The notes beneath the pieces are model-generated. The model ran no database searches, was not told where the DNA came from, and was given only the letters and a program-made list of their open reading frames with translations. The position numbers were made by a program, and so were the translations under genes. A stretch of 64,000 bases of DNA from Pseudofrankia coriaricola (GTDB taxonomy: Bacteria > Actinomycetota > Actinomycetes > Frankiales > Frankiaceae): the NCBI RefSeq assembly GCF_001854805.1, contig NZ_MBLO01000180.1, positions 1 through 64,000 on the forward strand, in the 5' to 3' direction. Below are positions 22,161 through 54,117 of this stretch, one piece after another (within the stretch, counting starts at the first letter, position 1; the number at the start of each line of letters is the position of its first letter).

Positions 22161-23860
<1,700 letters not shown>

Positions 23861-23864
<4 letters not shown>

Positions 23865-27372: not shown

Positions 27373-27948
27373 GTGGGAGTCAGCCTCAGCAAGGGTGGCA
27401 ACGTCTCGTTGTCGAAGGAGGCGCCCGGTCTCACGAGCATGATCGTCGGCCTCGGCTGGGACGCTCGGACGACGACCGGGAGCGACTTCGACCTGGACGC
27501 GAGCGCGATCGCCTGCCGCGCCGACGGCCGGGTGCTCTCCGACCAGTACTTCATCTTCTTCAACAACCTGCGCAGCCCGGACGGCGCGATCGAGCACCAG
27601 GGCGACAACCTCACCGGTGAGGGTGAGGGTGACGACGAGCAGGTGAAGATAAACCTCGGCAGCCTGCCGTCGGAGATCGACAAGATCGTGTTCCCGGTGT
27701 CGATCTACGATGCCGAGGCGCGTCAGCAGAGCTTCGGCCAGGTGCGCAACGCCTTCATCCGGATCGTCAACGACCTCGGTGGCGCCGAGATCGCTCGGTA
27801 CGACCTGTCCGAGGACGCGTCGACCGAGACCGCCATGATCTTCGGTGAGGTCTACCGGCACGGCAGCGACTGGAAGTTCCGCGCGGTCGGCCAGGGCTAC
27901 GCGACCGGCCTGCGCGGCATCGCGCAGGACTACGGCGTCAACGTCTGA
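27373..27948 (+). CDS. terD: TerD-family calcium-binding stress protein
   Basis: A 191-residue TerD protein. TerD proteins are cytoplasmic, bind calcium and belong to tellurite/stress-response systems. Hallmarks are [45 protein letters not shown], and the calcium loop [16 protein letters not shown], then [21 protein letters not shown]. All canonical acidic residues are present, so calcium binding is expected. GTG 27373 follows GGGAGGAACACA. It is the first gene of the plus-strand Ter island, just right of repeat copy 3. Confidence 0.96.
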
Positions 27949-27960
27949 GGCGCTCCCGCG

Positions 27961-27983
27961 GCCCGGGCGCGCAGCGCCCGGCC
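27961..27983 (+). terminator. Hairpin after terD
   Basis: CCGGGCGC / GCGCCCGG with a GCA loop, 15-34 bases after the terD stop. It has no T-tract. It could end or attenuate the terD transcript before the downstream TerC-like gene. Confidence 0.45.
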
Positions 27984-28389
27984 GCCGGGCAGCGGGTTCT
28001 GCCGGGTCGTGTTCGCCGACCCGGCGGAACCATCGGTCCGACGGGTGACGCCCGGTGCGAGGCGGCCGGCGGAGGGTGGCCGTTCAGGTCGGGACGGTGA
28101 TTGTTGGCATCGTGTCGCCCGCTTGTCACTTTTGTCCGTGGTGGTGCTGGCTACGATGCCGAGAGCCGCGCAAGTACCACGAGCGTGTCGAAGGTCGTTC
28201 GTCCGGTGGCCCAGATCACCGGAGCCACACGGCGCCGCCAGGCGCGGGTGGACGGCCGGGTGCTCGGGCCGGCGCGACAGACGGCGGCGCCGATGACGGC
28301 GGTGCGGCGGACTCCGGCGGACCGGAGCCGTAGTGCCAGGGCGCCCGCCGGTCACATCCCTCGACCGGTCCGCGGAGGTGCTGGTACTG
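27984..28389. other. Intergenic region before the TerC-like gene
   Basis: About 400 bases without a supported gene. TTGTCACTTTTGTCC and TACGAT near 28120-28160 are promoter-like but their spacing does not fit a standard -35/-10 pair. GGAGG at 28372-28376 is a candidate ribosome site for GTG 28390. Confidence 0.4.
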
Positions 28390-29529
28390 GTGCACATCTT
28401 GCGGATCTTTGGTTGGTCCTTCGCGATAACCGCCGTGGTCATCGCGGGCGCCGGCGTGCTAGGCGGCTGGCACGCCGCCGCGATCGTGACGATCCTGGCG
28501 GTCCTGGAGATCAGCCTGTCGTTCGACAACGCGGTGATCAACGCGACCATCCTGGGTCGGATGAGCCCGGTCTGGCAGCGGCTGTTCCTCACCGTGGGTG
28601 TGCTCATCGCCGTCTTCGGGATGCGGTTGATCTTCCCGATCGTTGTTGTCGCGCTTACCGCGCACCTTGGCCCGGTACAGGTCATCGACCTGGCGGTCAA
28701 CTCGGACAAGGTGAGCGACGGGTTCACCTATGCCGGCCATCTGCACAACGCCCACCCGGCGATCGCGGCCTTCGGCGGCATTTTCCTCTTCATGATCTTC
28801 CTGGACTTCATGTTCGACCCCGAGCGTGAGGTCCAGTGGCTGCGCTGGATCGAGGAGCCGCTGCGCAAGGCTGGCCAGCTCGACGTCATTCCCGTGGTGC
28901 TCGGGCTGGTCGCGCTGCTCGTGGTCGGCGAGGCGTTCTCCGACGGCCACACCGAGCAGGTCCTCGTCGCCGGGCTCGCGGGCCTCGCGACCTATCTGGG
29001 CGTGCGCGGTCTCGGCGAGTTCTTCGAGGCACAGGGGATCGGCGCCGACGAGGAGGACGGCGACGCCGAGGCGGAGCCGGGCGCCGTCGCCAAGCGCGGC
29101 GGCGTGGTCCAGGCGACGGGGAAGGCCGCGTTCTTCCTCTTCCTCTACCTCGAGGTCCTCGACGCGTCGTTCTCGTTCGACGGCGTCGTCGGCGCGTTCG
29201 CCATCTCGCAGGACATCTTCGTCATCGCCGCCGGCCTGGGCATCGGCGCGATGTACATCCGGTCGCTCACGGTCTACCTGGTGCGGCGGGGAACGCTGTC
29301 GGAGTACGTGTTCCTGGAGCACGGTGCTCACTACGCGATCGGCGCGCTCGCCATCATTCTCGCCGTGTCGATCGAGACCGAGGTTCCCGAGATCGTCACC
29401 GGGCTGATCGGCGTCGCCTTCATCGGTCTCGCCCTGCTGTCGTCGATGCGACACCGCGACGCGAACCGTGACGAGGGCGACGAGGCTGGCGAGCAGGAGG
29501 TGCCGGAACCAGTCGGCGCCAAGTCCTGA
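28390..29529 (+). CDS. TerC-like integral membrane protein (DUF475)
   Basis: A 379-residue polytopic membrane protein of the DUF475 branch of TerC. It has about eight or nine hydrophobic helices. The first half carries ILRIFGWSFAITAVVIAGAG and VLEISLSFDNAVINATIL, with the TerC Asp-Asn pair. The second half repeats it as YLEVLDASFSFDGVVGAFAI. An acidic loop (ADEEDGDAEAEPG) separates the halves, and the C-terminus is acidic and cytoplasmic. TerC proteins are implicated in metal-ion export or metal loading with TerD partners. GTG 28390 matches family N-termini (HxLRIFGWSF); earlier in-frame starts give a non-conserved extension. Confidence 0.92.
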   Translation: MHILRIFGWSFAITAVVIAGAGVLGGWHAAAIVTILAVLEISLSFDNAVINATILGRMSPVWQRLFLTVGVLIAVFGMRLIFPIVVVALTAHLGPVQVIDLAVNSDKVSDGFTYAGHLHNAHPAIAAFGGIFLFMIFLDFMFDPEREVQWLRWIEEPLRKAGQLDVIPVVLGLVALLVVGEAFSDGHTEQVLVAGLAGLATYLGVRGLGEFFEAQGIGADEEDGDAEAEPGAVAKRGGVVQATGKAAFFLFLYLEVLDASFSFDGVVGAFAISQDIFVIAAGLGIGAMYIRSLTVYLVRRGTLSEYVFLEHGAHYAIGALAIILAVSIETEVPEIVTGLIGVAFIGLALLSSMRHRDANRDEGDEAGEQEVPEPVGAKS

Positions 29530-29814
29530 CCGCGTGCTGACCGCGCGGCCGCGGGAGAAGACGGGCAACGGTCAGGCAAAACGCGGCCTTCACATCGGCC
29601 GCCCGTCCCGTGCCTGTTCACGGGCCGGGCGGCCAGCCGGGTGGAAGCCCCTCCCGGGGCAGGGCCGTGACGGCGATACTCCACCACTTCTACCGCCGTG
29701 CAGAATGGTTGGCGGGGTCGTCGGGCCGGTGACGGCCGGGAGGTCTGCCCCGGGGACGCCCCCGGTCTCCCCGATCCGACGGGCCGCCGCGGACGACACC
29801 GCAAAGGAGCGGAC

Positions 29815-31403: not shown

Positions 31404-31410
31404 GAGCCTC

Positions 31411-31486
31411 CCCCACCGATCTGCCGGGTCGCTCCTTTTCCGATGGTCCGGCGCTGGTCGGGGGTCGGTGTGTCAGATCGGCGGGG
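31411..31486. repeat. Inverted repeat upstream of the Hsp70 gene
   Basis: CCCCACCGATCTG (31411-31423) and CAGATCGGCGGGG (31474-31486) pair over 13 bases with one mismatch, with a 50-base loop. It lies just after the GrpE-like stop and 200 bases before hsp70. It may be an attenuating hairpin or a binding site. No HspR (HAIR) or CIRCE box is present in the 283-base gap. Confidence 0.4.
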
Positions 31487-31686: not shown

Positions 31687-33378
<1,692 letters not shown>

Positions 33379-34017
33379 CTGTATTGCTGGTTCGCTGTAT
33401 TTCTGGTTCGCTCCGTCCGGGCGGCGCGCTCCGGCCCCTTACTCGCTTCGCTCCCAAGGGACCTCCGCGCGCCGTCCTCCTCCGCTCACGGGCGCTCCGG
33501 CGACCTCGCTGCGGCCCGCCTACGTCGCTTCGCTCGTAGGAGGGCCTCCGCGAGGTGCGCCTCCGCGCCCAGCGCGGTTGCTTGCCGCTGTACGTCACGA
33601 GACCACAAGACGCGTGCGCGGGGTCCACGTCGCTTCGCTCGTGGGCCGGGCCTCCGCGGAGGTGCGCCTCCGCGCCCAGCACGGTCACCCGCCGCTGAAC
33701 GTCACCTATCCGCGGCAGGCCCATCCGTAGGCCACGTCGCTTCGCTCGTGGAGACGCGAAGACCGCACGAGCGAAGCGACGTACCCAGACGAGCGCTGTG
33801 GCTTCGGGTTGGCGACGTACAGCGGCACGCAACCGAGCTGGCGCGAAGGCGCACCTCGCGGAGGCCCGGCCCCGGAGCGAAGCGAACGGGGCCGGGCCTC
33901 CGCGAGGTCGCCGGAGCGCCCGTGAGCGGAGGAGGACACGGCCCGGAGGTAGCCCGCGAGCCGCCAGGCGAGCGGGCTGCCGGAGGGCCGTGCCCGCACG
34001 GAGCGAACCATGTCAAC
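33379..34017. repeat. Mosaic inverted-repeat element, copy 4
   Basis: This begins at the base after the Hsp70 stop codon, with CTGTATTGCTGGTTCGCTGT then CTGTATTTCTGGTTCGCTCC, the same left end as copy 1. Hairpins around the shared loop are 33436-33460 (CCCTT/AAGGG), 33519-33540 (CCTACG/CGTAGG), 33625-33644 and 33732-33751 (CCACG/CGTGG), and 33869-33893 (GGCCCCG/CGGGGCC). The right arm ends GGAGCGAACCA with AACCTTCCCGCCCAACC beyond it. The remaining 270 bases to the next gene hold nothing recognisable apart from the GAGGTGAGG ribosome site. Confidence 0.85.
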
Positions 34018-34284: not shown

Positions 34285-37200
34285 GTGAGCGCGGCGTTTG
34301 ATGGCAGCGGATACCGCCAGCGGGTGCTGGCGGTGCTGCGCGCGCGCTCTCCGCTGCGGCTCGACGACCCGTTCTTCGTCGCCGATCTGGATCCCGAGGG
34401 CGGGGACACCGACGCCGAGGTGCAGGCGAGGCTCGCTCGGGTGCTCGCGTTCCTGCAGCGGGAGCGCAGCTCGGCGAAGTACGCGACGCTCGCCGCGGAG
34501 CTCGTCCGCCGCCGGGCGGAGTGGGAGGCGCCGCTGCGTGACGCCGAGGCGCGGGAGCGGACCCGCCAGCGGGTCGTCGAGGCTCGCCGGGACGGCGACA
34601 CCGAGCGGCTCGCCAAGGTCGACGGCTACCTGGCCACCGTGCGCGAGCGGTTCGGCGGCATCCCGATCTCCCGGGTCGAGGGCCTGCGCCGCCTCGCCGC
34701 CCAGGCCGGGGTGGTCGGCGAGCGCTTCGACACACGGCTAGCCAGGGAACGGCTCATCGACGACGCGGCCGGGGTGGGCGTCGCGCCGCTGCCGGCCGAC
34801 GCGCGCGGCCAGATCCGGGAGCGGCTCGACGAGCTGCGGGCCCTGCGCCGCGGCGACCACGCCTCGACCGCCTCGCTGTGGGCCTTCCTCGGAGTGGGGC
34901 CCGACGGGCCGCCGGCCCGGCTCGTGGCCGCGTACGAGGCGGTCGCGGCGGTGAACGCCCGCCGGCCGCACGACCGGGAGAAGACGGTGACCGCGGACCT
35001 GCTCGCGCTGGTCCGCACCCGCCTGCTGGAGGGCGACCCGGCCGCCTACACCGCCGGCCTGCTCGCCGACGCGGCCGACGAGCTGCGTGCCGCGGTGGAG
35101 GAGCACGTCCTCCTGGACGGCGAGATCACCGCGGTCGCCTTCGAAGGCCTGATGCGCCGGACGCTGGGCGCCGGCCGTGGCCTGTCGGCGGCCCAGGTCA
35201 GATCGGTCGTGCTGGGCCTGGCCCGCGACCTGGGCGTCCCGGTGAGCACCGGCGCGACGGTCGACTTCGTCGTCTGCCCTGGCTGCGGGCGCCCGGAACC
35301 GGTCGGCGAGGTCCGGGTCTGCCGGTACTGCGACACCGATCTCTACATCGTCTGCCCCACCTGCGGGCGGCTGACCGAGGCGGCGGCCGCCGTCTGCCGG
35401 CAGTGCGGGCAGAGCGTCCGCCAGTCCAGGGACGCGACGGAGGCGCTCACCGCGATCCGCCGCGCGCTCGACGACGGCAGGCCGGCCGAGGCGGTCGAGC
35501 TGATCGGCCGGGCGCGGCCGGCGCTCGCCGCCGTGGGCGCCCCCGCCATCGCCGCCGGTGACGAGCTCGCCGCGCGCGTGGCGGCCGCCCTCGCCGCCGC
35601 CGACGCGGGGTGGCGGGCGCTCGCGGACGACCGTGGCGCGGGCCGGGCCGAGGCCGCGCTGGAGCGGGCGCGCTGGCTGGTCGCGCAGGCGGCCGACGTG
35701 CCCGGCCCGGACGGCCGAGGCGCCGCCGAGGTTCTCGAAGAGCTGACCATGGCCCAGGCGATGATCCGGCGGCGGGTGGACGCGGCGCTCGCGTTGCCGC
35801 CGGCGGCGCGGGAGGCCGCGCTCGTCGCCGTGCTGGCCAGCGCCTCGGACAGCCCGGAGGCCCTCGCGGCGCTGGCCGCTCTCCCGCTCGCGCCGGTGGT
35901 CGACCTGGCCGCGATGCCGGCCGGGGGCGCCTCCTCGGGTGCCGCCGGGGCGGTGCTGCTGCGCTGGCGGGCCGCCGACACCGCGACGCCGTTGTCGTTC
36001 CGGGTGGACCGGGTGGTCGCCGGGACGCTCGGCGCCCCGCCGGCCCGCTTCGCCCTCGGTACCACCACGGCCATGGAGCTGACCGATGCCGGCGCGCCCG
36101 CGTGGACGCCGGTGTATTACGAGGTGACGGCGGTCTCCGGCAGCCGCCACTCGCCGGTCGCGCGGACCGAGTCGCTGGTCCTCAGCCGGGACGTCGAGGG
36201 GCTCCGGGCCCAGCAGACCGCGGACGGTGTCCGGCTGACCTGGCGCCTGGAGGGCCCGGTCCAGCTGGTGACCGTCGAGCGGGCGGTCGAGGCGGTCGAG
36301 GTGCTCGAACCGATGGAGGCGCTCGACGACGGGAGCGCCGGCCCGCCCACCGGGGGGCTCGCGGTGGGCGACGGGGAGCCTCGGGACGTGGACCGTTCGG
36401 TCCGGCATACCCGGGTCAGCGGCGGGGTGCTGACCGATCCGGACGTGCAACCGGGTGTCACCTACCGTTACCGGCTCTCGGTGGAGTATGTCGAGGGCGA
36501 CGGCTCGCCCGCCCGCACGCCGGGCGTGGAGACCTCGGTCGCGGTGGCGCTGCGGCCGCGGCCGGTCCTCGACCTGTCCGTCGCGTTCGCGGGTGGCGAG
36601 ACCATGCTGCGCTGGACGGCGCTTCCCGGTTCGGACGTGCGGATCTACGCCACGTCGGGCGTGTTGCCGGACACGGCGGCGCCGGCAGCGGGCCGGTACC
36701 CGACGCAGCCATCCGCCCCGGCTGGGCCGTTCGGACCAGAGAACACCGACCTGCCGCTGGGCGCCGCCACGGGGCCGGCCCGCCTCGTCGGCGCGAGCCG
36801 GCGCGGCCGGCTGCTGGACTCGGCCGCGGTCGGCCCGGTGATCTACACCCCGGTCAGCGTTCTCGGCGGCAGGGGTGTCGTCGGCCGGCCGGTCCAGCAC
36901 GTGGCCCCCGGCGGGGTCACGGAGCTGCGCGTCGAGGACCGGGGCGACGAGCTGGTGCTGTTCTTCCGTCTCGCGGCTGGGCTGACCGAGGCCAGGGTGC
37001 TCTGGCGGCGTGACCGGATGCCGACCGGCCCGGACGATCCCGTGGCCTCGGCCGCGACGGTGACCATCGCGGGTCTCGCCCTGCGCGGTGGTGGCTGGCG
37101 GCTCGCCGCGCCGCGCGATGGCTGGCCGTACTACGTGTCCTGCTTCCCGGTGTTCCGGGTGAACGGCCAGCCGCGCGCCGCGTCGGCCGGCGCCGAGCTG

Positions 37201-38796
37201 CTCGCCCGGGCGCCCGCCGTGCCGCTTCCGGCCGCCGGAAGCGGCACCGGGCCGATGGCCCTGCCGGGAGCTCCGGCCGGGCCGGAGGCGTCCTATCTCA
37301 CGCCACTGCCGCCCGGCCCGCCGACCGGCGCGTTGCCTGTCCCCACCGGGGCCATGCCGGTGCCGTCTCCCGCCAGCGCCGCGCTGCTCCTCCCGTCGGC
37401 GACGTCGGCGATGCCCATGGCACCGGCGCGCGGTCACGCGCAGCCACCTGGTGCCGTGCCGCTGCCCGGCCCGGCGCCGGCCGCCGGGCCGGGCACCGCC
37501 GGGATGCCGGTCGGTCTGGGCAGGGCGCCCGCGCCCGCGGGGCCGCCCGTGTCCTCTCCGGGCGCGGCGCCGCCGGTGCCGCCACCCGCCGTGATGCCGC
37601 ATGTGCCGCCCCCGGCGGCCGTTCCGCCCGTACCGTCGCCTGCCGGGATGCCATCGGCGGGGATGCCAGGAGCCCCACCGCCCGGAGCGGTGCCGCCCAT
37701 GCCGCCCTTGGGCCAGGGGCAGGCCTCGGTGCCGCTTCTCCCCTCGCCCCCCGCCCCGGTGGCCGGGCCGGGGGTGCCGCCGGGCCCGCGGGGCCAGGCC
37801 GCACCCGCCGGGCCGTTGCCGCCGATGGTGAACCCGCCGACGTCGGGCTCTGGACTGCCTGTCATGCCCAGGCCAGGGGCGCCGGCCCAGCCCGGCCAGG
37901 AGCCGCCCCCCGCGCCCATGCCGTCCACTCCGCCCGCGCCGTCGCACCAGCCCGCGCCGTCGCACCAGCCCGCGCCGTCGCACCAGCCAGCGCCGCCGTC
38001 GCCCGTGTCCGAGGCGGCCGCGTGGCCAGGCCCGGCGGGTTGGGCGAGCCCGCCGGCCCCGCCTCAGGGCCCAGCGGGACTGGCCGCGCTGCCGCCGTGG
38101 ATCCCCGCCACTCCGACGGGTGGCACGGCTGGCTGGGATGGGCACCTTCCGGCGCTCGGCGCGCCCGCCTGGCCCGCGCCCGCGAACGGCCCGGCGGCGG
38201 GCCCGCGGCCTGGCTGGACGTTGCCGGCGATGCAGGGCGGCCTGTTCGCCCCGGCCGGTCCGGGCGGCCAGTTCGATGACGGCGCCGGGACGCCGGAGCA
38301 CGTCGGGTACCAGGACCAGCTGACCCTCTCGCCACCGGACGAGTTCACCGGCCACGCCACCGTCCCGCCGCCGGCGGGCAGTCCCGGCGGCAGGTTCGAC
38401 GACGGTGCCGGAGTGACCGCGGCGTCCGACGAGGACGCGGACGACGACCTGGCCGACGAGCCGCCGGAGGGCGGCTCGGGGGAGCCCTGGGTGGCCTACT
38501 CGGTGGCGCGCGCCGGCTGGCGGCGGCGCGTCCTGCGGGTCCGGGTCCGCAGCGGGGGCACCGTGCCCGAGCTGGTGCTCGTCGCCCGTCCCGGGACACT
38601 GCCGCCGGCGGAGCTCGCCGAGGGGCAGGCGCTCGCCCGGCTCGCGCCGTCCGCGCAGCGCGTCACCCGGACCATGGAGGTCCGTCTCGACGGCGCCCTG
38701 CTGCCCTGGGGGATCAGGGTGCTGCCCGTGGCCGACGGCGCGGACGAGCCGGTCACGGTCGAGCACCCGTCGGATGACGCACTCGTAGTTCGCTAG
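34285..38796 (+). CDS. Giant zinc-ribbon / FN3-like / Pro-rich protein of the Ter-Hsp70 island
   Basis: A 1503-residue protein with no signal peptide or clear membrane helix. Residues 1-325 are alpha-helical and Arg/Glu/Ala-rich (RERSSAKYATLAAELVRRR). Residues 331-374 hold four Cys-x2-Cys pairs (CPGC, CRYC, CPTC, CRQC), two tandem zinc ribbons. Residues about 380-540 are helical. About 545-790 contain fibronectin-III-like units (AVLLRWRAADTATPLSFRV; VRLTWRLEGPVQLVTVERA; PGVTYRYRLSVEYVEGD), then more beta-rich sequence to about 965. About 1000-1340 is Pro/Ala-rich, with HQPAPS repeats. The C-terminal 130 residues form a beta-rich domain. GTG 34285 follows GAGGTGAGG. It lies downstream of the GrpE-Hsp70 pair, which suggests a client adaptor or J-protein substitute; this is inference, and no HPD motif is seen. 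The biochemical function is unknown. Confidence 0.88.
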   Translation: MSAAFDGSGYRQRVLAVLRARSPLRLDDPFFVADLDPEGGDTDAEVQARLARVLAFLQRERSSAKYATLAAELVRRRAEWEAPLRDAEARERTRQRVVEARRDGDTERLAKVDGYLATVRERFGGIPISRVEGLRRLAAQAGVVGERFDTRLARERLIDDAAGVGVAPLPADARGQIRERLDELRALRRGDHASTASLWAFLGVGPDGPPARLVAAYEAVAAVNARRPHDREKTVTADLLALVRTRLLEGDPAAYTAGLLADAADELRAAVEEHVLLDGEITAVAFEGLMRRTLGAGRGLSAAQVRSVVLGLARDLGVPVSTGATVDFVVCPGCGRPEPVGEVRVCRYCDTDLYIVCPTCGRLTEAAAAVCRQCGQSVRQSRDATEALTAIRRALDDGRPAEAVELIGRARPALAAVGAPAIAAGDELAARVAAALAAADAGWRALADDRGAGRAEAALERARWLVAQAADVPGPDGRGAAEVLEELTMAQAMIRRRVDAALALPPAAREAALVAVLASASDSPEALAALAALPLAPVVDLAAMPAGGASSGAAGAVLLRWRAADTATPLSFRVDRVVAGTLGAPPARFALGTTTAMELTDAGAPAWTPVYYEVTAVSGSRHSPVARTESLVLSRDVEGLRAQQTADGVRLTWRLEGPVQLVTVERAVEAVEVLEPMEALDDGSAGPPTGGLAVGDGEPRDVDRSVRHTRVSGGVLTDPDVQPGVTYRYRLSVEYVEGDGSPARTPGVETSVAVALRPRPVLDLSVAFAGGETMLRWTALPGSDVRIYATSGVLPDTAAPAAGRYPTQPSAPAGPFGPENTDLPLGAATGPARLVGASRRGRLLDSAAVGPVIYTPVSVLGGRGVVGRPVQHVAPGGVTELRVEDRGDELVLFFRLAAGLTEARVLWRRDRMPTGPDDPVASAATVTIAGLALRGGGWRLAAPRDGWPYYVSCFPVFRVNGQPRAASAGAELLARAPAVPLPAAGSGTGPMALPGAPAGPEASYLTPLPPGPPTGALPVPTGAMPVPSPASAALLLPSATSAMPMAPARGHAQPPGAVPLPGPAPAAGPGTAGMPVGLGRAPAPAGPPVSSPGAAPPVPPPAVMPHVPPPAAVPPVPSPAGMPSAGMPGAPPPGAVPPMPPLGQGQASVPLLPSPPAPVAGPGVPPGPRGQAAPAGPLPPMVNPPTSGSGLPVMPRPGAPAQPGQEPPPAPMPSTPPAPSHQPAPSHQPAPSHQPAPPSPVSEAAAWPGPAGWASPPAPPQGPAGLAALPPWIPATPTGGTAGWDGHLPALGAPAWPAPANGPAAGPRPGWTLPAMQGGLFAPAGPGGQFDDGAGTPEHVGYQDQLTLSPPDEFTGHATVPPPAGSPGGRFDDGAGVTAASDEDADDDLADEPPEGGSGEPWVAYSVARAGWRRRVLRVRVRSGGTVPELVLVARPGTLPPAELAEGQALARLAPSAQRVTRTMEVRLDGALLPWGIRVLPVADGADEPVTVEHPSDDALVVR
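37933..37994 (+). repeat. 18-base tandem repeat encoding SHQPAP units
   Basis: Three exact copies of CCCGCGCCGTCGCACCAG and a partial fourth lie inside the Pro-rich linker of the giant protein, giving SHQPAPSHQPAPSHQPAP. The copies are identical at third positions, so the expansion is recent and length variation between strains is likely. Confidence 0.85.
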
Positions 38797-39277
38797 ATGG
38801 GACTGGGGCGCGAGGGGGTCGCGAGGGTGACGCGCGGCCAGGGGCCGAGGGCGGGGCACTGACGTGGCCCAGATGGTTGACCTGACGTAGATCTTCCGTA
38901 GCTTCTTGGTTGGTTTGCGGGGGCGGTTGACGCCCTTTTGCCGGAATCGCGGCGCACATGCGGACAGCCGTCCCGAAATGTCCGGAAGTGTTTTCCCATG
39001 GGCGCTGCCGCGGGTGCCGGCACGGCGATTACCATGCTTGTGATCAAGTATTGCCGTGTATCCGAGGGTGCGCCGGTATTCGGCACGTCGTCCAGGGCCA
39101 CGGTGGCGGGCGCCGTTTGGGAGGGCCGTTACGGCCGCTCCGGAGGGGACGGGGCCACGCGCCGCCGCTCGTGACGTGCGCCGACACCTCCGGGTGCTCC
39201 ACACCCACGGCGGAAGGACGAGCCGGCGCCACGCGGTCGCCGCCTCGCCCGCCACGACCGAAAGGCAGCGCGTTCGC
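38797..39277. other. Intergenic region before the GH26-like gene
   Basis: About 480 bases, distinctly lower in GC at 38870-39070 (GTAGATCTTCCGTAGCTTCT; ATTACCATGCTTGTGATCAA). It probably contains a promoter for the secreted protein gene. I looked for a c-di-AMP riboswitch core, which often precedes cell-wall genes in actinobacteria, and did not find one. Short frames here are not convincing. Confidence 0.45.
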
Positions 39278-40786
39278 ATGGCCTTGGCAGACAACGGTCG
39301 CCTGTCCCCTCCGGCGAGCCGTCCGGTTCAGCGAGCCGTCCATTCCATGCCCGCCGTAGCGGCGGGCGGACCCACCTGGCGCCGTTCCCGCCGGCGCCAC
39401 TCCCGCCGGCGTCAGTTCGCCGCGCTGGCGAGCGTCTTCGCCGTCGCGCTGCTGACACTCACGGTGCCCGGCGTGACGGCCGCCTCAGCGGCCACCACAC
39501 CGCCGGCCACCACACCGCCGGCCACCACGCCACCACTCGACCAGAGCGGGCAGACCAGCGGGGTGGCCGCCGTGCCGGCCCTGGCGATCGTGCTGTTCGA
39601 CAGCGACATCGTGCTCGTCGGCGGCCGCGGCTTCCTCCCCGGCCAGGACGTGAAGATCGAGGCGGCCACCGAGCAGCTCGGCGGCTCGGCCTCCATGAAG
39701 GCAGGCGGCGAGGGTCGTTTCCTGCTCGGCTTCCAGCTGCCGGCCAGCTTCGCCGGGAAGGTGTCGGTGACCGCCACCCAGGGCGAGCGGAAGGCCTCCG
39801 GCGAGCTGGCCGTGGGTGGCCCGGCGCCGGCGCCGACGATCACGCCGACCGTGCCCGCGGGCGCGCCTGAGACGACGAGCAAGCTGGACACCGCCGGCAA
39901 GAACTCCGGGCTTCCGTGGATGTCCGGCGTCCATCCGGCGAACGAGATGCAGCCCTACCTGGACTTCGGCACGTGGCGGGGCCGGCAGGTCGACCTTGCC
40001 CACGTGTTCACGGTCCGCGAGCAGGGCTGGGACCCGATCGTCGAGCCGACCTGGCCGGTGGAGGACTTCGCCAGCTTCCCCGGCAAGCTGGTAATCAGCC
40101 AGCCGCTGTACCCGGAAGGGGTCGGCAACAACGCCGACTGCGCGAACGGCGCGTACAACGACCAGTGGAAGCGGTTCGGCACCTTCCTGGTGAACCACAA
40201 CCGCGCCGACACGATCGTGCGGATCGGCTGGGAGTTCAACGGCTGGTTCATGTACTGGCACGTCGACGCCGACCCCACCAACTGGGTGAAGTGCTTCCAG
40301 AACGTCGCGACCGCGATCCGGTCCACCGACCCGGACATAAAGATCGACTGGACCTTCAACGCCCACAACTCGCCGGTCCCCGACGGGGGCTCGCCCTGGC
40401 CCGCCTACCCGGGTGACGAGTACGTCGACTACATCGGGATCGACCCGTACGACATGTTCCCGCCGTCACCCGACGAGGCCACCTTCGACCGGCAGTGCAA
40501 CGACCCGAACGGCCTCTGCTACGCCGCCAAGATGGCCCGGGAGCACGGCAAGAAGCTCTCCGTCGGTGAGTGGGGCGTCACGTCCTGCTCCGGTGACCCT
40601 GGTGGCGACAACCCGCTCTACATCCGGAAGATGTGGGAGACGTTCGTCGCCAACAAGGACGTCATGGGCTACGAGTCGTACTACGACGACCCGATGCCGA
40701 ACAACGTCTGTTCCACGATCTTGAATGGCGGGGTGAACCCCAACTCGGCCGCCGAGTACAAGAAGCTCTGGGACGGCGGGGTCTAA
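39278..40786 (+). CDS. Secreted GH26-like (beta-mannanase superfamily) glycoside hydrolase
   Basis: A 502-residue secreted protein. An Arg-rich n-region (RRSRRRHSRRRQ) is followed by a hydrophobic core, FAALASVFAVALLTLTVPGV, and AASA cleavage; the twin Arg may allow Tat export. A TPPAT repeat linker and a small beta domain (about 95-190) precede a catalytic barrel. The two GH26-type acids are visible: Glu319 in RIGWEFNGWF and Glu431 in SVGEWGVTS. Substrate is unknown; relatives act on beta-mannan or other beta-glycans. Start ATG 39278 has GAAAGG upstream; ATG 39347 is also possible. The gene sits between the giant protein and the Ter biosynthetic operon and is followed by a strong terminator. 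Confidence 0.85.
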   Translation: MALADNGRLSPPASRPVQRAVHSMPAVAAGGPTWRRSRRRHSRRRQFAALASVFAVALLTLTVPGVTAASAATTPPATTPPATTPPLDQSGQTSGVAAVPALAIVLFDSDIVLVGGRGFLPGQDVKIEAATEQLGGSASMKAGGEGRFLLGFQLPASFAGKVSVTATQGERKASGELAVGGPAPAPTITPTVPAGAPETTSKLDTAGKNSGLPWMSGVHPANEMQPYLDFGTWRGRQVDLAHVFTVREQGWDPIVEPTWPVEDFASFPGKLVISQPLYPEGVGNNADCANGAYNDQWKRFGTFLVNHNRADTIVRIGWEFNGWFMYWHVDADPTNWVKCFQNVATAIRSTDPDIKIDWTFNAHNSPVPDGGSPWPAYPGDEYVDYIGIDPYDMFPPSPDEATFDRQCNDPNGLCYAAKMAREHGKKLSVGEWGVTSCSGDPGGDNPLYIRKMWETFVANKDVMGYESYYDDPMPNNVCSTILNGGVNPNSAAEYKKLWDGGV

Positions 40787-40796
40787 CCGTCGTGCC

Positions 40797-40839: not shown

Positions 40840-41148
40840 AATGGCGAGGCCGCGCCGTCGCGGAAAGTAGCCATCCGATGATCGTCGCGTTGTGGCGGAT
40901 GGCGACCGGGTGGATGCTGATCGGATCCGTAACCGGTTGAACCGGCTTGGTATGGAACGGCGGCATTACGGACAAATGTCGGAAAGGCGTCAGTGGGACG
41001 TTTCCCAGCGTCCCGCCCCTTCTGGAGGGTACGGTCCGACGCGTCGGACGTTCTCGCAGGTCCGGCGGCGCGTGAGCGCACCCCGGCGGGAATTCGCCGA
41101 GCCGCGCGCCCAGGGGCGAGGCCCGTCGAGCTAGAAGGAGCCGCTGCG
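40840..41148. other. Promoter region of the Ter biosynthetic operon
   Basis: About 310 bases between a terminator and the CitE-like gene. No coding content is supported. It must hold the operon promoter; a lower-GC part lies at 40910-40985 (GGTTGAACCGGCTTGGTATG). AGAAGGAG at 41133-41140 is the ribosome site for GTG 41149. Confidence 0.5.
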
Positions 41149-42342
41149 GTGCGACACTTCGCCTTCCTCGACTCGGCGGCCAGTGACGCGTTGTTCCACC
41201 TGCCGCCGGTCGAGATCACCCGCGACGACGACCGGCGGATGGTCGCGACGGCACTCGGCGCGACGCTGTACGCGCCGGGGACCCGGCCGCGGCTCGCGGA
41301 CGACGTGCGCCGTCAGTCGGCCGCCGGCGTCGCGTCGATGGTGCTGTGCCTCGAGGACGCGGTCGCCGACCACGAGGTGGCGGCGGCGCAGGCGAACGTG
41401 GTGCGCGCCCTCAACCAGCTGGGCGACGAGCCGCCACGCGTCGGCGACGACTCCGGCATGCTGTTCGTGCGGGTGCGCGCGGCCGAGCAGATCCCCGCCC
41501 TCATCGCCGGGCTCTCGGCCGCGGCGGCGGACGTGCTCACCGGCTTTGTGCTGCCGAAGTTCGTCGAGGACAGCGGCGAGCCGGCGCTCGAGGCGGTGCT
41601 GCGGGCCAGCGACACGATCGGCCGCCCCCTGTGGGCCATGCCCGTGCTGGAAAGCCCGGAGGTCATCTACCGGGAGACTCGGCTGGACACGCTGCGCGGG
41701 GTGCGCCGTCTCGTCGACAAGCACGCCGACCATGTGCTGGCGGTGCGGCTGGGCGCCACCGACCTGTCCGGGCTCTACGGGCTGCGCCGCGACCGCGATC
41801 TGACCATCTACGACATCGCCGTGGTGCGGGACTGCATCGCCGACATCGTCAACGTCTGCGCCCGCGGCGGTGACCACGTCGTCACCGGGCCGGTCTGGGA
41901 GTACTTCGCTCAGCCCGAGCGACTGTTCCTCAGCACGCTGCGGGTCACCCCGTTCGCCACGGCGGATCTCGCGAACCCGGACGTCCAGGGCCCCGCGCTG
42001 CGCCAGGACCTCGTCTCCGCCGACCTCGACCGGTTGATCAAGGAAGTCGTGCTGGACAAGGCGAACGGCCTGATCGGCAAGACCGTCATCCATCCCAGCC
42101 ACGTCGCCGCCGTCCATGCCCTCTACGTCGTGACCCACGAGGAGTACGAGGACGCGCAGACGGTGCTCGCCGGCGAGTCGGGTGGCGTCCAGCCCAGCCG
42201 CTACGCGAACAAGATGAACGAGCTGCGCCCGCACCGGATCTGGGCGCAGACCGTGACCAGGCGCGCCGCCGCCTTCGGGGTGCTCCGCGAGGGCCACACC
42301 TTCGTCGACGTGCTCGCGGCCAGCCAGGTGGTGGCCGCTTGA
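41149..42342 (+). CDS. CitE-like HpcH/HpaI-family lyase of the Ter biosynthetic module
   Basis: A 397-residue protein of the HpcH/HpaI (citrate-lyase beta-like) aldolase family. Family motifs are ATLYAPGTRPRLADD, MVLCLEDAVADHEV (metal-ligand Glu69/Asp70 region), FVRVRAAEQIPAL, TGFVLPKF, and the C-terminal GLIGKTVIHPSHVAAV. CitE-like enzymes cleave or form C-C bonds in CoA or phospho-sugar substrates. Comparative genomics links this subgroup with TerD-type operons and a predicted nucleoside-like metabolite. GTG 41149 has AGAAGGAG eight bases upstream. It opens a four-gene operon in which every junction overlaps by four bases. Confidence 0.92.
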   Translation: MRHFAFLDSAASDALFHLPPVEITRDDDRRMVATALGATLYAPGTRPRLADDVRRQSAAGVASMVLCLEDAVADHEVAAAQANVVRALNQLGDEPPRVGDDSGMLFVRVRAAEQIPALIAGLSAAAADVLTGFVLPKFVEDSGEPALEAVLRASDTIGRPLWAMPVLESPEVIYRETRLDTLRGVRRLVDKHADHVLAVRLGATDLSGLYGLRRDRDLTIYDIAVVRDCIADIVNVCARGGDHVVTGPVWEYFAQPERLFLSTLRVTPFATADLANPDVQGPALRQDLVSADLDRLIKEVVLDKANGLIGKTVIHPSHVAAVHALYVVTHEEYEDAQTVLAGESGGVQPSRYANKMNELRPHRIWAQTVTRRAAAFGVLREGHTFVDVLAASQVVAA

Positions 42343-43991
42343 AACCGCCGGCACCCGGCGGCTCGGCGACTGGCGGCTCGGCACCCGCGGCCGCGGGTGC
42401 CGGCCGCGCTGTGGTGGGCATCTCGGCCCCAGGCGGTTCCACGGCCGGCCGATTCGCGGATGGTGGACCAGTGTTGGACAGCTCCCCGCTCGCCGGCCGG
42501 GCGGACCGGTCTCCCGCGAGCCCGTGGCCGCCGGCCGGGGACGGCGGGGACGACGACGGCTGGCTGTGGGTGGCACTGGGACTCGCGGCCGAGGTGACCG
42601 AGGACGTCACCGGCGCCGGGCTGGGCGGCATTGTGGGCCTGGCGCTGCGGCGCAACCCGCGCCGTGCCCACCTGCTGGTCAGCCGGGTGCTTGGCAAGCA
42701 CCTGCCGGTCCGGCCCGAGGTCGCGCTCGGCGCGGCCGCCGCGCTCGCCGCCAGGGCGCGCGACGTCTCCGCTGTCGGCCGCGCCGGCGGCGCGCCGTTC
42801 GTCCTCGGCTACTGCGAGACGGCGACCGCCCTCGGGCACGCGGTGGCCGACGGCTTCGCCGACGCCGACTACCTGCACACCACCCGCCGCGCGGTCGCCG
42901 GGATGCGCTCCGAGCTGGAGCTCGCCGAGACGCACTCACACGCCGTGCACCACTGGCTGCTGCCCGCCGATCCGCGGCTGCTGACCGACCCCCGCCCGCT
43001 GCTGCTCGTCGACGACGAGCTGTCCACCGGCAACACGGCGCTCGGCACGATCCGGGCGCTGCACGCGCTCGCCCCGCGCCCCGCCTACACGGTGGCGACG
43101 CTGCTGGACGCGCGGCCGGCGGCCTCGCGGGCGCGCTTCGACGAGGTGGCGGCCGAGCTGGGCGTGCCCGTCGACGTCGTCTCGCTGGTGTCCGCGACCG
43201 TCGCGGTGCCGCCCGACGTGGCCGACCGTGCCCGGGCGCTGCGCGAACGCCACGGCGCGGCGGCGGGCGGCGCCGCCCGCGCGAACGACGGCGTGGGTGG
43301 CGCACCCGACGGCTCGGCGATGACCGGGCTGGGCCCGCCGAGGTCGGTGACGTGGCTGCGCCCGCCGTGGCCGGCCGAGCTGCCCGATGGGGGGCGGCAC
43401 GGCTGGGCGCCGCGCCACCGCGGGCTGCTCGACGAGACGGTGGGGAACGTGGCCGCCGCCATCGCGGACCGGCTGGTCGAGCCGGGCGGGCGGACGCTCG
43501 TGCTGGGGACGGAGGAGCTCATGTACACCCCGATGCGGCTTGCCGCGGCGCTCGGCCGGGCAACCGGCGGCGACGTGCGCTACCAGTCGACCACCCGGTC
43601 GCCGGTGCACCCGCTCGACGTGCCCGGCTACGCGATCCGGTGCGCGCTGGAGTTCCCGGCGCCGGACGACCCCGGCCGTGTCAGCCAGGTCTACAACGTC
43701 GCGCCAGGCCGCTACGACGACATCGTTGTGGTCGTCGACGACGGCACGGACGCCACGGCGCCGGCCGCCGGCGACGGCCCGCCGCCCGAAGCGGCTGGCA
43801 GGCTGGCCCATGGCCGGCCGCGGAGGGCATCGAAGGCGGCGTGGCCCGAAGCGGCTGGCAGGCTGGCCCATGGCCAGCCGCGGAGGGCGTCGACGGCGGC
43901 ATGGCCCGCGGGCCTGGTGGAGGTGCTGCGCCACTGCGCGCCGGTCACCGTCGTCACGTTGCCGTCGTTCGTCCCGGCGGGCGCCCGGTGA
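42339..43991 (+). CDS. Phosphoribosyltransferase with TRSP domain
   Basis: A 550-residue protein. The first 70 residues are Gly/Ala/Pro-rich. Residues about 85-320 form a PRTase fold with the PRPP-binding loop LLLVDDELSTGNTALGTI (about 222-239). Residues about 350-550 match the TRSP partner domain found in Ter-associated PRTases (WAPRHRGLLDETVGNVAAAI; TLVLGTEELMYTPMRLAAAL; RYQSTTRSPVHPLD). TTG 42339 gives a TTGA overlap with the CitE-like stop; an internal start nearer residue 45-70 cannot be excluded. A 20-residue duplication interrupts the TRSP domain. It is predicted to join a base-like moiety to PRPP. Confidence 0.9.
   Translation: MKPPAPGGSATGGSAPAAAGAGRAVVGISAPGGSTAGRFADGGPVLDSSPLAGRADRSPASPWPPAGDGGDDDGWLWVALGLAAEVTEDVTGAGLGGIVGLALRRNPRRAHLLVSRVLGKHLPVRPEVALGAAAALAARARDVSAVGRAGGAPFVLGYCETATALGHAVADGFADADYLHTTRRAVAGMRSELELAETHSHAVHHWLLPADPRLLTDPRPLLLVDDELSTGNTALGTIRALHALAPRPAYTVATLLDARPAASRARFDEVAAELGVPVDVVSLVSATVAVPPDVADRARALRERHGAAAGGAARANDGVGGAPDGSAMTGLGPPRSVTWLRPPWPAELPDGGRHGWAPRHRGLLDETVGNVAAAIADRLVEPGGRTLVLGTEELMYTPMRLAAALGRATGGDVRYQSTTRSPVHPLDVPGYAIRCALEFPAPDDPGRVSQVYNVAPGRYDDIVVVVDDGTDATAPAAGDGPPPEAAGRLAHGRPRRASKAAWPEAAGRLAHGQPRRASTAAWPAGLVEVLRHCAPVTVVTLPSFVPAGAR
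43785..43908 (+). repeat. 60-base in-frame tandem duplication in the PRTase gene
   Basis: Two 60-base copies (43785-43844 and 43845-43904) differ at only a few positions and encode PEAAGRLAHGRPRRASKAAW and PEAAGRLAHGQPRRASTAAW. They lie between the strand VVVVDDGTD and the helix LVEVLRHCAP of the TRSP domain. The near identity points to a recent slip or recombination event. Confidence 0.9.
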
Positions 43992-45217
43992 CCGCGACCA
44001 CCGCGGCGACACCGGCCGCCGGCCGGCCCGCGTCCGGCCCGGTCCCACCGGACGCGCCGCCCGGCGCGGGCCTGCCTGGCACGATCGGCTCCGGCTCCTA
44101 CGACCCGGCGGACGTCACGTTCCTGCTCAAGGACCTCTCCGCCGTCGCCCTCGAGCGGTCCACCGAGGACCGCGAGGAGGACATGCAGCGCGGCCGGCAC
44201 TACTCCGAGGACCTGCCGGTCGAGTACCAGCCGGACGACGGCTACCTGGAGCTGTACCACCAGGCCCTGGAGCGCTCGGCGACCAGAGTGGCGCTGGCCG
44301 CGGGCGTCGTCTCCGAGCTGGTGCGCGTCGCCAAGCCCGCGCCGGTGCTGGTGTCGATCGCGCGGGCCGGCACGCCAGTCGGCATCCTGATGCGCCGCTG
44401 GTACGCCTTCCGCTACGGCCTCGACGTGCCGCACTACGCGATCTCGGTGATCAAGGACAGGGGTGTCGACCTCAACGCGGTCCGCCACCTCACCGCCCGC
44501 CACGACCCGGCCGCGCTGCAGTTCGTCGACGGCTGGACGGGCAAGGGCGTGATGACCCGGGTGCTCACCGAGACGGTCGTCCCGCTCGGTCTCGACGACA
44601 CCCTGGCGGTGCTCGCGGACCCCGCCCGGTGCGTGCCGCTGTACGGCACCCGCGACGACTTCCTCATCCCGAGCGCCTGCCTGAACTCCACGGTCAGCGG
44701 GCTCGTCAGCCGGACGGTGCTGAACGCCGAGCACATCGGCCCGGGCGACTTCCACGGCGCGAAGTACTACCGCGACCTGGAGCCGCACGACCTGTCCCGC
44801 CACTTCGTCGAGACGGTCGTCGCCCGGTTCGCCGACGTCGCCGACGAGGTGGCCGAGACCTGGCCCCGGCTGTGGGCCGGCGACCGGACCCCGACCTGGG
44901 AGGGCTGGGCCGCCGTCGAGCGGATCGCCGAGCGGTACGACATCCCCGACGTGGCGATGGTGAAGCCGGGCGTCGGCGAGGCGACCCGGGTGCTGCTGCG
45001 CCGGGTGCCGTGGCGGGTGCTGATCGCCCCGGGCGCGGCCGGCGAGCTCGCGCACGTGCTCGCCCTGGCCGAGGCGCGCGGCGTGCCGGTCGAGGAGATG
45101 CCCGGCCTGCCGTTCTCGTGCGTCGGCCTCGTCCGCCCGGTGCGCGCCGACGGGGAGGCCCCGGAGTTCCACACGGCGCAGTCCCGGTACCGCCCGGTCA
45201 CCGAAGCCGGGCAGTGA
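43988..45217 (+). CDS. StiP-family protein (cysteine-protease/PRTase-like with PELOTA domain)
   Basis: A 409-residue StiP-family protein, named for its predicted cysteine-protease-like domain and found in Ter operons. Hallmarks are GSYDPADVTFLLKDL, the START segment RHYSEDLPVEYQPDDGYLEL, PVLVSIARAGTPVGILMRRW, HYAISVIKDRGVDLNAVRHL, FVDGWTGKGVMTRVL and YGTRDDFLIPSACLNSTVSG. The C-terminal RNA-binding-type PELOTA domain is VAMVKPGVGEATRVLLRRV (about 321-395). The GTG start overlaps the PRTase stop (GTGA). The true substrate is unknown; family models place it in synthesis or transfer of a nucleoside-like compound. Confidence 0.92.
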   Translation: MTATTAATPAAGRPASGPVPPDAPPGAGLPGTIGSGSYDPADVTFLLKDLSAVALERSTEDREEDMQRGRHYSEDLPVEYQPDDGYLELYHQALERSATRVALAAGVVSELVRVAKPAPVLVSIARAGTPVGILMRRWYAFRYGLDVPHYAISVIKDRGVDLNAVRHLTARHDPAALQFVDGWTGKGVMTRVLTETVVPLGLDDTLAVLADPARCVPLYGTRDDFLIPSACLNSTVSGLVSRTVLNAEHIGPGDFHGAKYYRDLEPHDLSRHFVETVVARFADVADEVAETWPRLWAGDRTPTWEGWAAVERIAERYDIPDVAMVKPGVGEATRVLLRRVPWRVLIAPGAAGELAHVLALAEARGVPVEEMPGLPFSCVGLVRPVRADGEAPEFHTAQSRYRPVTEAGQ

Positions 45218-46059
45218 CGCTCCCGGAGGCCGCGCCGGGCGCGCGGTGGCTGGTCGCGTGCGACCTCGACCAGACGCTGATCTTCTCGCGGCGCTCGTTC
45301 CGGCTGCCCGAGGGCGCCGCCGAGCCGCCGCTGGTCACCGTCGAGCACCTCGACGGCGAGCCGGCGGCGTTCATGACCGAGACGGCGTTCGCCAGCGTCG
45401 CCGAGCTCGCCGGCCGCGCCGTGCTGGTGCCGGTGACGACCCGCACGCTCGGCCAGTACCGCCGTGTCGACCTCGGGGTCGCGCCGGCCTACGCCGTCGC
45501 GGCGAACGGCGGCCATCTGCTCGTCGACGGCGAGCCCGACCCGGCCTGGGCCGCCACCGTCGCCGAGCGGCTGCGCGCCGGGGCGCCGCTCGCCGCCATG
45601 CTCGACGTCGCCGCGCGGCTCGCCACCGGCGGCTGGTGCCGGCTGACCCGGGTCGCCGACGACGTGTTCGTCTACCTGGTCGCCTACGACCGTGACGGCA
45701 TCCCGGACCTCGCCGAGGTGACCGCCGAGGTCGAGGCCGCCGGCTGGACCGTCTCCGTGCAGGGCCGCAAGGTCTACCTCGTCCCGGCCGCGCTCACCAA
45801 GCAGGCCGCGCTCGCGGAGGTGGCCCGCCGCGCCGGCGCCGACCGGGTCGCCGCCGCCGGCGACTCGCTGCTCGACGCCCCGATGCTGCTCGCGGCCGAC
45901 GCCGCCGTCCGCCCCGCCCACGGCGAGCTCCACGACCGCGCCTGGGCCGCCCCCAACCTGCGCGTCACGGCGGCCCCCGGCCTCCTCGCCGGCGAGGAGC
46001 TCCTCGCCCACCTCAACGGCCTTGTCTGCGCCCCCGCGCTGCCCGTTTCACAGGCATGA
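45214..46059 (+). CDS. HAD-family phosphatase of the Ter module
   Basis: A 281-residue HAD hydrolase. Motif I is CDLDQT (nucleophile Asp17, acid/base Asp19), motif II VPVTTRT, motif III the Lys in TKQAALAEVARR, and motif IV GDSLLDAPML (about 216-225). The cap is of the sucrose-phosphatase/Cof type. It would dephosphorylate the phosphoribosyl product of the preceding PRTase. The GTG start overlaps the StiP stop by GTGA. It closes the operon; I see no ATP-grasp gene, which often accompanies this set elsewhere. Confidence 0.9.
   Translation: MTLPEAAPGARWLVACDLDQTLIFSRRSFRLPEGAAEPPLVTVEHLDGEPAAFMTETAFASVAELAGRAVLVPVTTRTLGQYRRVDLGVAPAYAVAANGGHLLVDGEPDPAWAATVAERLRAGAPLAAMLDVAARLATGGWCRLTRVADDVFVYLVAYDRDGIPDLAEVTAEVEAAGWTVSVQGRKVYLVPAALTKQAALAEVARRAGADRVAAAGDSLLDAPMLLAADAAVRPAHGELHDRAWAAPNLRVTAAPGLLAGEELLAHLNGLVCAPALPVSQA

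Positions 46060-51609: not shown

Positions 51610-54117
<2,508 letters not shown>

What the first reader, a model, noticed from the sequence alone, without database searches (positions are those of the whole stretch)
27373..46059. Integrated Ter - Hsp70/GrpE - giant adaptor - nucleoside-metabolite island
On one strand lie TerD, TerC-like DUF475, TerA-like, GrpE-like, Hsp70, a 1503-residue zinc-ribbon/FN3-like protein, a secreted GH26-like protein, and the four-gene set CitE-like / PRTase-TRSP / StiP / HAD. TerD/TerC and that biosynthetic set are known to co-occur and have been proposed to make a nucleoside-like compound. A dedicated chaperone pair physically joined to them by a GTGA overlap (TerA-like to GrpE-like), plus a giant uncharacterised partner, is the part I do not recognise as described. 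I suggest a stress response in which calcium/metal-sensing Ter proteins, a specialised Hsp70 and a modified nucleoside act together.
Basis: partly seen in the sequence, partly recalled or inferred. Interest (0 to 1): 0.8.

Follow-up and report, generated by a model that had tools for sequence, protein, structure and literature searches.

The report
Chaperone module wired into tellurite-resistance operon
In Frankia-type soil bacteria a dedicated protein-folding machine (an Hsp70, its exchange factor and a giant helper protein) is built into a stress-response gene cluster for tellurite-type resistance and a predicted nucleoside-like signal; the machine is related to a module known from predicted bacterial defence systems.

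Summary
Window 27373-46059 holds TerD, DUF475/TerC, a divergent TerD-like gene ("TerA"), GrpE-like, Hsp70, a 1503-aa protein, a GH26-like protein, CitE-like lyase, PRTase-TRSP, StiP-PELOTA and HAD, all on +. TerA-GrpE-Hsp70-giant is contiguous in 16 of 20 fetched Frankiaceae loci; three others reach contig ends, one an apparent transposase. In the deepest genome TerA is followed directly by CitE. The giant has a J-domain-like fold, double zinc ribbon, TPR-like helices and FN3-like repeats. GrpE-Hsp70-giant is related to the HSP70 theme of GAP1-N2 double-GTPase conflict systems (Kaur 2020), which occur elsewhere in Frankiaceae; here no GTPase or GAP1 was found and Ter genes are the neighbours. 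In a second family, such triads sit beside TerA-like or TerD genes in 5 of 16 genomes, and 16 of 16 carry StiP (127 of 251 overall). HPD is absent from the J-like segment and the matching Arg167 from the Hsp70s, suggesting an insulated pair. Against generality: 18 of 19 Ter-StiP loci outside Frankiaceae lack the chaperones. New variant of a known kind; the mechanism (chaperone-driven assembly of Ter proteins) is inferred.

The parts
27373..27948 (+). TerD
   Evidence: PF02342 281 bits; one of 14 TerD matches in the genome, 13 of them over the cut-off
28333..29529 (+). DUF475 / TerC-family membrane protein
   Evidence: PF04332 399 bits, PF03741 63 bits
29815..30486 (+). TerA-like: divergent TerD-superfamily protein with an N-terminal IDY(S/T)KRP tail
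   Evidence: no Pfam match; hhalign to TerD E 4.5e-5; f4 homologues start at the same motif; start codon
30483..31403 (+). GrpE-like nucleotide exchange factor, low-complexity N-terminus, conserved C-terminal ~145 aa; GTGA overlap with TerA-like
31687..33378 (+). Hsp70, 563 aa, conserved ATPase-domain motifs, rewritten linker, short C-terminus; Asp at the position of DnaK Arg167
   Evidence: PF00012 323 bits; alignment
33400..34010 (.). intergenic inverted/direct repeats between Hsp70 and giant
34285..38796 (+). giant protein, 1503 aa: helical N-terminus, J-like segment, double zinc ribbon, TPR-like helices, FN3-like repeats, Pro-rich stretch, conserved C-terminal end
34870..35034 (+). J-domain-like segment (giant aa 196-250), no HPD
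   Evidence: AF2 model; 31 of the first 37 VIA rows carry a J-domain, DnaJ or Hsp40-type name, the other six are chains of large complexes whose titles do not name them; no HPD in 40 rows
35275..35409 (+). double zinc ribbon (giant aa 331-375), 4 CxxC
   Evidence: PF12773 25.6 bits, below cut-off; CxxC set in 18 of 18 type-A rows, not in other types
35899..37149 (+). FN3-like repeats (giant aa 539-955)
   Evidence: Foldseek to fibronectin type III arrays, E 5e-11
39056..40786 (+). secreted GH26-like protein (accessory; found in 10 of 16 complete relatives' loci; true start probably later)
   Evidence: PF02156 18.4 bits, sub-threshold
40993..42342 (+). CitE-like C-C bond lyase
   Evidence: PF15617 407 bits
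42339..43991 (+). PRTase_2 + TRSP
43988..45217 (+). StiP + PELOTA_1
45214..46059 (+). HAD-like hydrolase
   Evidence: sub-threshold

Best explanation
Shown: a GrpE-Hsp70-[J-like/FN3] triad, related to the chaperone part of GAP1-N2 double-GTPase conflict systems but with no GTPase or GAP1 found beside it, is built into the conserved actinobacterial Ter plus nucleoside-type cluster of most Frankiaceae, and triads of a sister type lie beside TerD-superfamily genes in two genera of another family. Inferred: the giant is the targeting co-chaperone. Its J-like domain docks a dedicated Hsp70, its FN3/TPR/zinc-ribbon parts bind the client, and the client is the TerA/TerD-DUF475 assembly at the membrane. 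When the nucleoside-like product of CitE-PRTase-TRSP-HAD or a metal ion is bound, Hsp70/GrpE cycles would assemble or take apart that complex, the switching role that GTPases are thought to have in the related systems. Loss of HPD together with loss of Arg167 would insulate this pair from housekeeping DnaJ/DnaK.
For: TerA-GrpE-Hsp70-giant contiguous in 16 of 20 fetched Frankiaceae loci, the other 4 cut by contig ends (3) or an apparent transposase (1). GTGA overlap in 6 of 6 same-genus loci. Related GrpE-Hsp70-FN3 genes with DO-GTPase2 and GAP1-N2/M/C, complete by Pfam in L194, GAP1 also in L190, look-alike gene order in L191-L193, as in Kaur 2020 section 29. Tree: type A 98/98, with the other GTPase-less type 97/91, GAP1-type outside. 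Triad next to TerA-like (4 genomes of g20) or TerD (1 of g346) in f4; rough chance estimate 0.2-0.3% a genome. 16 of 16 triad+ f4 genomes have StiP vs 111 of 235 others, Fisher 1.1e-5. J fold; FN3. HPD absent in 40 of 40 rows, Arg167 absent in 44 of 44 system Hsp70s that show the motif. Double zinc ribbon only in type A.
Against: 18 of 19 non-Frankiaceae Ter-StiP loci lack an Hsp70 in the stretch held. 11 of 16 f4 triads have no Ter match in the fetched 20 kb. In the deepest Frankiaceae genome (G014) TerA is followed directly by CitE (L171), so the insertion is younger than the family or was lost there. A second giant-type match occurs in 29 of the 34 Frankiaceae genomes matched, with Hsp70 beside it and mostly no Ter gene. 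J-fold matches have Foldseek E 0.4 or worse and Z at most 7.1; the sequence-profile match is weak (prob 11%). Homology of the giant to the GAP1-type FN3 proteins was detected for L190 and L194 only. No expression or interaction data. The co-occurrence test ignores shared ancestry (4 genera).
Confidence: 0.55

Rival explanations
1. Stable neighbours without shared function: the triad is an independent conflict or stress module that landed once between TerA and CitE in a Frankiaceae ancestor and has been inherited there; the f4 adjacencies are coincidences.
For: Insertion is clade-specific; the triad lives away from Ter genes in 11 of 16 f4 genomes, and 8 of 9 second Frankiaceae copies have no Ter match near; internal gaps of 283 and 906 nt; g3 has the cluster uninterrupted.
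Against: GTGA or short TerA-GrpE spacing kept in two genera; TerD-superfamily neighbours in g20 and g346 on opposite sides of the triad; phyletic co-occurrence with StiP.
Confidence: 0.27
2. A specialised protein-quality-control Hsp70 system: the triad refolds stress-damaged proteins (including Ter enzymes) as an extra DnaK/GrpE/DnaJ set.
For: GrpE, Hsp70 and a J-like protein form a chaperone kit; ATPase-domain motifs conserved.
Against: HPD and Arg167 lost, canonical linker rewritten, no HspR box above chance, giant unlike DnaJ; relatives belong to GTPase conflict systems.
Confidence: 0.1
3. Pseudo-J scaffold: the giant holds the Hsp70 without stimulating ATP hydrolysis; the complex is a static sensor or filament.
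For: HPD absent in 40 of 40 rows; Kaur et al. propose multimeric assemblies for HSP70 and tubulins in such systems (passages).
Against: The Hsp70 contact residue changed as well, as expected of a changed but kept interface, though also of a lost one; ATPase-domain motifs are kept.
Confidence: 0.2

Closest known systems
GAP1-N2 double-GTPase conflict systems, HSP70/GrpE theme (Kaur et al. 2020, PMC7159879; section 29 and passages read)
   Same: GrpE, HSP70 and an FNIII-repeat protein with DnaJ-like or TPR part; same order GrpE-Hsp70-FN3 as in the GTPase versions in Frankiaceae
   Different: No DO-GTPase or GAP1 found in the block; double zinc ribbon on the giant; Ter and nucleoside-type genes as neighbours
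Actinobacterial Ter plus nucleoside-like metabolite cluster (Anantharaman et al. 2012; not held, known here from citing passages and recall)
   Same: TerD, DUF475/TerC, CitE-like lyase, PRTase_2-TRSP, StiP-PELOTA, HAD (one search shows the set in other families)
   Different: Chaperone triad between TerA-like and CitE-like genes
DnaK-DnaJ-GrpE
   Same: Hsp70 ATPase domain, GrpE-like factor, J-domain-like fold
   Different: No HPD, no Arg167, rewritten linker, shorter C-terminus, co-chaperone is a 1503-aa FN3-type protein

Membership tests
Ter plus nucleoside-like metabolite cluster | TerD with TerC/DUF475 next to CitE-like lyase, PRTase-TRSP, StiP and HAD | tested here: met
   same set in non-Frankiaceae loci
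Ter plus nucleoside-like metabolite cluster | makes a nucleoside-like compound / senses metal or calcium | not testable with these tools
   prediction in the literature only (passages)
GAP1-N2 double-GTPase system, HSP70 theme | HSP70 + GrpE + FNIII-repeat protein with DnaJ-like or TPR part | tested here: met
   by fold and homologues, since Pfam fn3, DnaJ and TPR do not match the window's giant
GAP1-N2 double-GTPase system, HSP70 theme | GAP1-N2 protein in the neighbourhood | tested here: not met
   none among the 16 block and flank proteins scanned with Pfam (11 block, 5 flank); other window ORFs not scanned; present in L190 and L194
GAP1-N2 double-GTPase system, HSP70 theme | one or two DO-GTPases | tested here: not met
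   same 16 proteins; two present in L194
DnaK (housekeeping Hsp70) | scores over the NCBIfam DnaK cut-off | tested here: not met
   TIGR02350 310 vs 822.55 bits; tree places it apart
J-domain protein | J fold (helices I-III) | tested here: met
   AF2 model of giant aa 168-282; Z up to 7.1, 3ucs_D rmsd 2.1 over 65 aa; Foldseek E 0.4, so fold similarity only
J-domain protein | HPD motif | tested here: not met
   0 of 40 rows
GrpE | PF01025 match over cut-off | tested here: inconclusive
   window protein 21.3 bits, under the 25.8 cut-off; homologues over it

The most novel reading that the evidence does not exclude
An orthogonal Hsp70 machine dedicated to Ter proteins: an HPD-less, metal-binding (double zinc ribbon) J-like giant and an Arg167-less Hsp70 have co-diverged into a private interface, with a Ter/nucleoside signal in the place of the GTPase switch of GAP1-N2 conflict systems, so that a nucleoside or metal signal gates chaperone-driven assembly of a membrane defence complex.
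Probability: 0.25. Interest if true: 0.85.

Novelty: new variant of a known kind. Interest (0 to 1): 0.6.

Why it matters
It links two predicted but uncharacterised bacterial stress/conflict systems (Ter-nucleoside clusters and GTPase-chaperone systems) through a shared module, gives the role of Ter proteins a testable ATP-driven partner, and offers a natural case in which both sides of the canonical J-domain/Hsp70 contact have changed together.

Tried and rejected
GrpE-like protein as phylum-wide query: 11 of 296 hits including the window's own genome, the other ten weak (best 34 bits, E 1.6e-8); at most 7 candidates per genome were scored, so it is not evidence of absence; replaced by profiles A1 and A4. 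Giant against own DnaJ J domains (4 of 5 DnaJ loci entered the profile): E 0.0027 for one comparison but prob 11%, helices I-II only; kept as weak, fold search used instead. PDB sequence searches: for the GrpE profile a GrpE chain at E 0.02 among 4 rows; for the giant profile 20 rows at E 0.35 or worse, DnaJ-type chains among them. HspR (HAIR, recalled motif) box: 1 match with 3 mismatches, 0.61 expected, rejected. Neighbourhood peculiar to this strain: rejected. Papers: seven searches on Ter, Hsp70, GrpE or GAP1-N2 terms listed no paper that I recognised, from titles, abstract starts and the passages read, as describing a Ter-linked Hsp70/GrpE/FN3 set; the lists were capped and the 2012 Ter paper is not held, so a mention cannot be excluded. 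Read: PMC7159879 section 29 whole, plus passages; PMC7824862, PMC8115787, PMC8215388 and PMC13012618 passages only.

Rows dropped before counts: G672 (23 bits, in-frame TGA). In one search, seven non-Frankiaceae genomes (six of the class outside f3/f4-type hits named above and one each of f3 and f9 among them) with short partial matches of about 31 bits or less, toward the zinc-ribbon and following part of the profile. In one search one truncated Hsp70 (L147) lacks the motif, and L012 (DnaK-like), missed by the pattern, was read by eye as Arg; L184's fragmented giant is not among the 40 rows, and L020 and L140 are one gene. In one search own rows L013, L015-L017, L020, L140, L148-L150 and L080 (L078 was on the same list) were left out by name as duplicate, divergent or cut; the tree holds most of them and gives type B 84/89.
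Full report
Setting. The window is part of an 11.2-Mb, 280-contig genome. The closest named relative at this locus among 29 loci is Pseudofrankia asymbiotica (giant N-terminus 98% identical; near-identical records may be left out there), so it is a Pseudofrankia-like member of Frankiaceae (inference).

What is there. The genes of the finding are on + at the stated coordinates. Strong Pfam matches cover TerD, DUF475/TerC, Hsp70, CitE-like lyase, PRTase_2-TRSP and StiP-PELOTA. The GrpE-like, GH26-like, HAD and double-zinc-ribbon matches are below Pfam cut-offs, and the TerA-like protein has none. GrpE identity is carried by homologues that pass the cut-off; TerA-like is a divergent TerD relative by profile comparison (E 4.5e-5, prob 69%). 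Four-base overlaps join TerA/GrpE, CitE/PRTase, PRTase/StiP and StiP/HAD (coordinates). There are gaps of 283 nt before Hsp70 and 906 nt before the giant gene.

Conservation in Frankiaceae. A GrpE-like match is found in 34 of 35 family genomes; one of them (G034) has only a weak 29% match, and the miss (G016) is 63% complete. The main-type giant is found in 34 of 35. In 20 fetched loci, chosen across genera, TerA-GrpE-Hsp70-giant is contiguous in 16 and 15 run on to CitE-PRTase-StiP. L063, L071 and L080 end at contig ends; L078 is interrupted after GrpE by what looks by eye like a transposase gene. Hsp70-giant-CitE at the start of a scaffold of Protofrankia coriariae (L134) may be the other half, since G024's giant lies at the same place of its contig (inference). 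Named loci agree: 17 of 26 main-type loci have TerA-GrpE-Hsp70-giant, the other 9 begin inside the set at a contig start. The two sets overlap in genomes. The GTGA overlap is kept in 6 of 6 loci of the window's genus; four loci of genus g2 have 15-19 nt instead, other genera longer or unclear spacing. The GH26-like gene is in 10 of the 16. In the deepest genome of the Hsp70 tree (g3, G014) TerD-DUF475-TerA-CitE-PRTase-StiP is uninterrupted (L171), and the triad is on another contig whose upstream side is cut off (L071).

The giant protein. An AlphaFold2 model of residues 1-955 (pLDDT 81, pTM 0.39, so domain arrangement is uncertain) shows a helical N-terminus, a low-confidence zinc-ribbon region, a helical TPR-like stretch and beta repeats. 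Foldseek matches the repeats to fibronectin type III arrays (E 5e-11). A separate model of residues 168-282 (pLDDT 89) resembles J domains: of the first six Foldseek rows four are J-domain entries and two are chains of an axonemal complex, prob up to 0.99 but E 0.4 or worse. Of the first 37 VIA-align rows 31 carry a J-domain, DnaJ or Hsp40-type name (ERdj5 counted, by recall) and six are chains of large complexes; Z is up to 7.1, with rmsd 2.1 over 65 residues for the CbpA J domain. The tool warns that Z under 8 may mean only a common arrangement; the neighbouring Hsp70 and GrpE genes make a J fold more likely (inference). The four CxxC of the double zinc ribbon occur in 18 of 18 type-A rows; type B and the five GAP1-type proteins lack them, one stray CxxC in L184 aside.

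Kinship. Weak GrpE-like hits led to six further fetched loci, five of them annotated by me (L190-L194). There a GrpE-like gene, an Hsp70 (41-44% identical to the window's) and an 890-944-codon gene come in this order, followed by look-alike genes. Pfam on ten proteins from L190, L191, L193 and L194 found GrpE, HSP70, two DO-GTPase2 proteins and GAP1-N2/M/C in L194, GAP1-N2/M/C in L190, and fn3 at 24.9 bits (cut-off 25) in L193. The window's giant matches the L194 protein by BLAST (E 7e-6) and the giant profile matches L190's (E 7e-11); the other three were not detected. This is the second theme of GAP1-N2 systems of Kaur et al. 2020 (section 29 read): HSP70, GrpE and an FNIII protein fused to DnaJ or TPR. 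With own DnaKs as outside group, GAP1-type Hsp70s fall outside a clade (97/91) of two GTPase-less types: A, the window's type in Frankiaceae (98/98), and B, a second Frankiaceae copy plus family f4 (99/98). The grouping of the GAP1 rows themselves is unsettled (62/30) and the program warns that long branches meet there.

A second family. A profile including second-type giants (A4) found them in 16 of 251 genomes of family f4, after dropping one weak hit; f4 is not named by the tools. GrpE, Hsp70 and giant lie together in all 16. Four genomes of genus g20 have a TerA-like gene directly after the giant, same strand, and G686 (g346) has TerD right after GrpE. In G434 (one of the four) TerD, DUF475 and the CitE-PRTase-StiP-HAD set lie around the triad as well; in the other three StiP is on another contig, and in G686 about 160 kb away. 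The other 11 (genera g11, g307) have no TerD or TerA match in the fetched 20 kb; in G631 and G779 a TerD match lies 16-17 kb off (which covered 12 of the 16 genomes). StiP is present in 16 of 16 triad+ genomes and 127 of 251 overall; Fisher 1.1e-5 without correction for ancestry. In a class-wide sample A4 matched 36 of 350 genomes, 34 Frankiaceae and 2 f4; in that search at most 6 candidates per genome were scored.

Limits of the link. Of 19 non-Frankiaceae StiP loci fetched (of 58 such genomes with a StiP match, one below cut-off), 18 lack an Hsp70 match in the stretch held, which is as short as 9.2 kb for one; only G434 has it. Of nine fetched second Frankiaceae copies, eight have no Ter match near and L146 has a TerD-like match (34%) about 5.5 kb from the giant. 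So the chaperones are an accessory of one family's cluster, with echoes in another.

Interface. Published work seen in passages: His33 of the DnaJ HPD contacts the DnaK linker and Asp35 contacts Arg167 (PMC8215388; PMC13012618, which also reports that D35N suppresses R167A). Here none of 40 type A/B rows shows HPD, nor do the first 350 residues of the five GAP1-type proteins, whose J-like fold was not tested. The Arg167 position is Asp in 18 of 18 type A rows, Asp in 5 type B Frankia rows (one more truncated), Gly 15 / Ala 1 in f4 and Asn 3 / Gly 2 in GAP1-type Hsp70s; own DnaK-like proteins have Arg (3 by pattern; L012 by eye). Rows are related and two repeat one gene, so these are few independent events. 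Both halves of the contact being lost together suggests a private or altered interface, or loss of J stimulation.

Mechanism. Passages describe Ter systems as signal synthesis, TerB/TerD ligand sensing and TerC membrane response (PMC7824862). I propose that the triad acts on the TerA/TerD-DUF475 assembly. Shown: homology, order, recurrence. Inferred: client, signal, insulation. Not tested: any binding, metal, nucleoside or expression.

Verdict. Observation confirmed; interpretation partly supported; a new variant of a known kind, interest 0.6.

Noticed in passing
window 1089-1339, 16946-17099, 26150-27180, 33400-34010, 55293: Intergenic-looking repeats with core CGCTTCGCTCG (16 copies vs 0.24 expected); in the two arrays examined about 105-nt spacing and inverted arms up to 128 nt at 91%; one lies between Hsp70 and giant.
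   Followed up: partly
window 22161-25912 (-) and 48923-54117: Glycogen/maltose-type genes (GlgE, an amylase-family protein, phosphorylase, another amylase-family protein) flank the block; GlgE lies next to TerD in many Frankiaceae loci.
   Followed up: partly
L067, L069, L074, L076 (GrpE-like genes): GrpE-like open frames of 945-1107 codons with very long low-complexity N-terminal parts.
   Followed up: no
L078 5348-6772: Gene that looks by eye like a transposase right after GrpE where Hsp70 is expected: IS insertion or assembly join.
   Followed up: partly
L190-L194: GAP1-N2 double-GTPase chaperone systems in Frankiaceae; in L190 it follows two large genes that look by eye like RNA polymerase subunits.
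   Followed up: partly
L140 (own genome C210): Second Hsp70-giant pair among housekeeping-looking genes, with no GrpE-profile match in that stretch.
   Followed up: partly
L146 3773-4288: TerD-like match (34%) about 5.5 kb from a second-type giant in one Frankiaceae genome.
   Followed up: no
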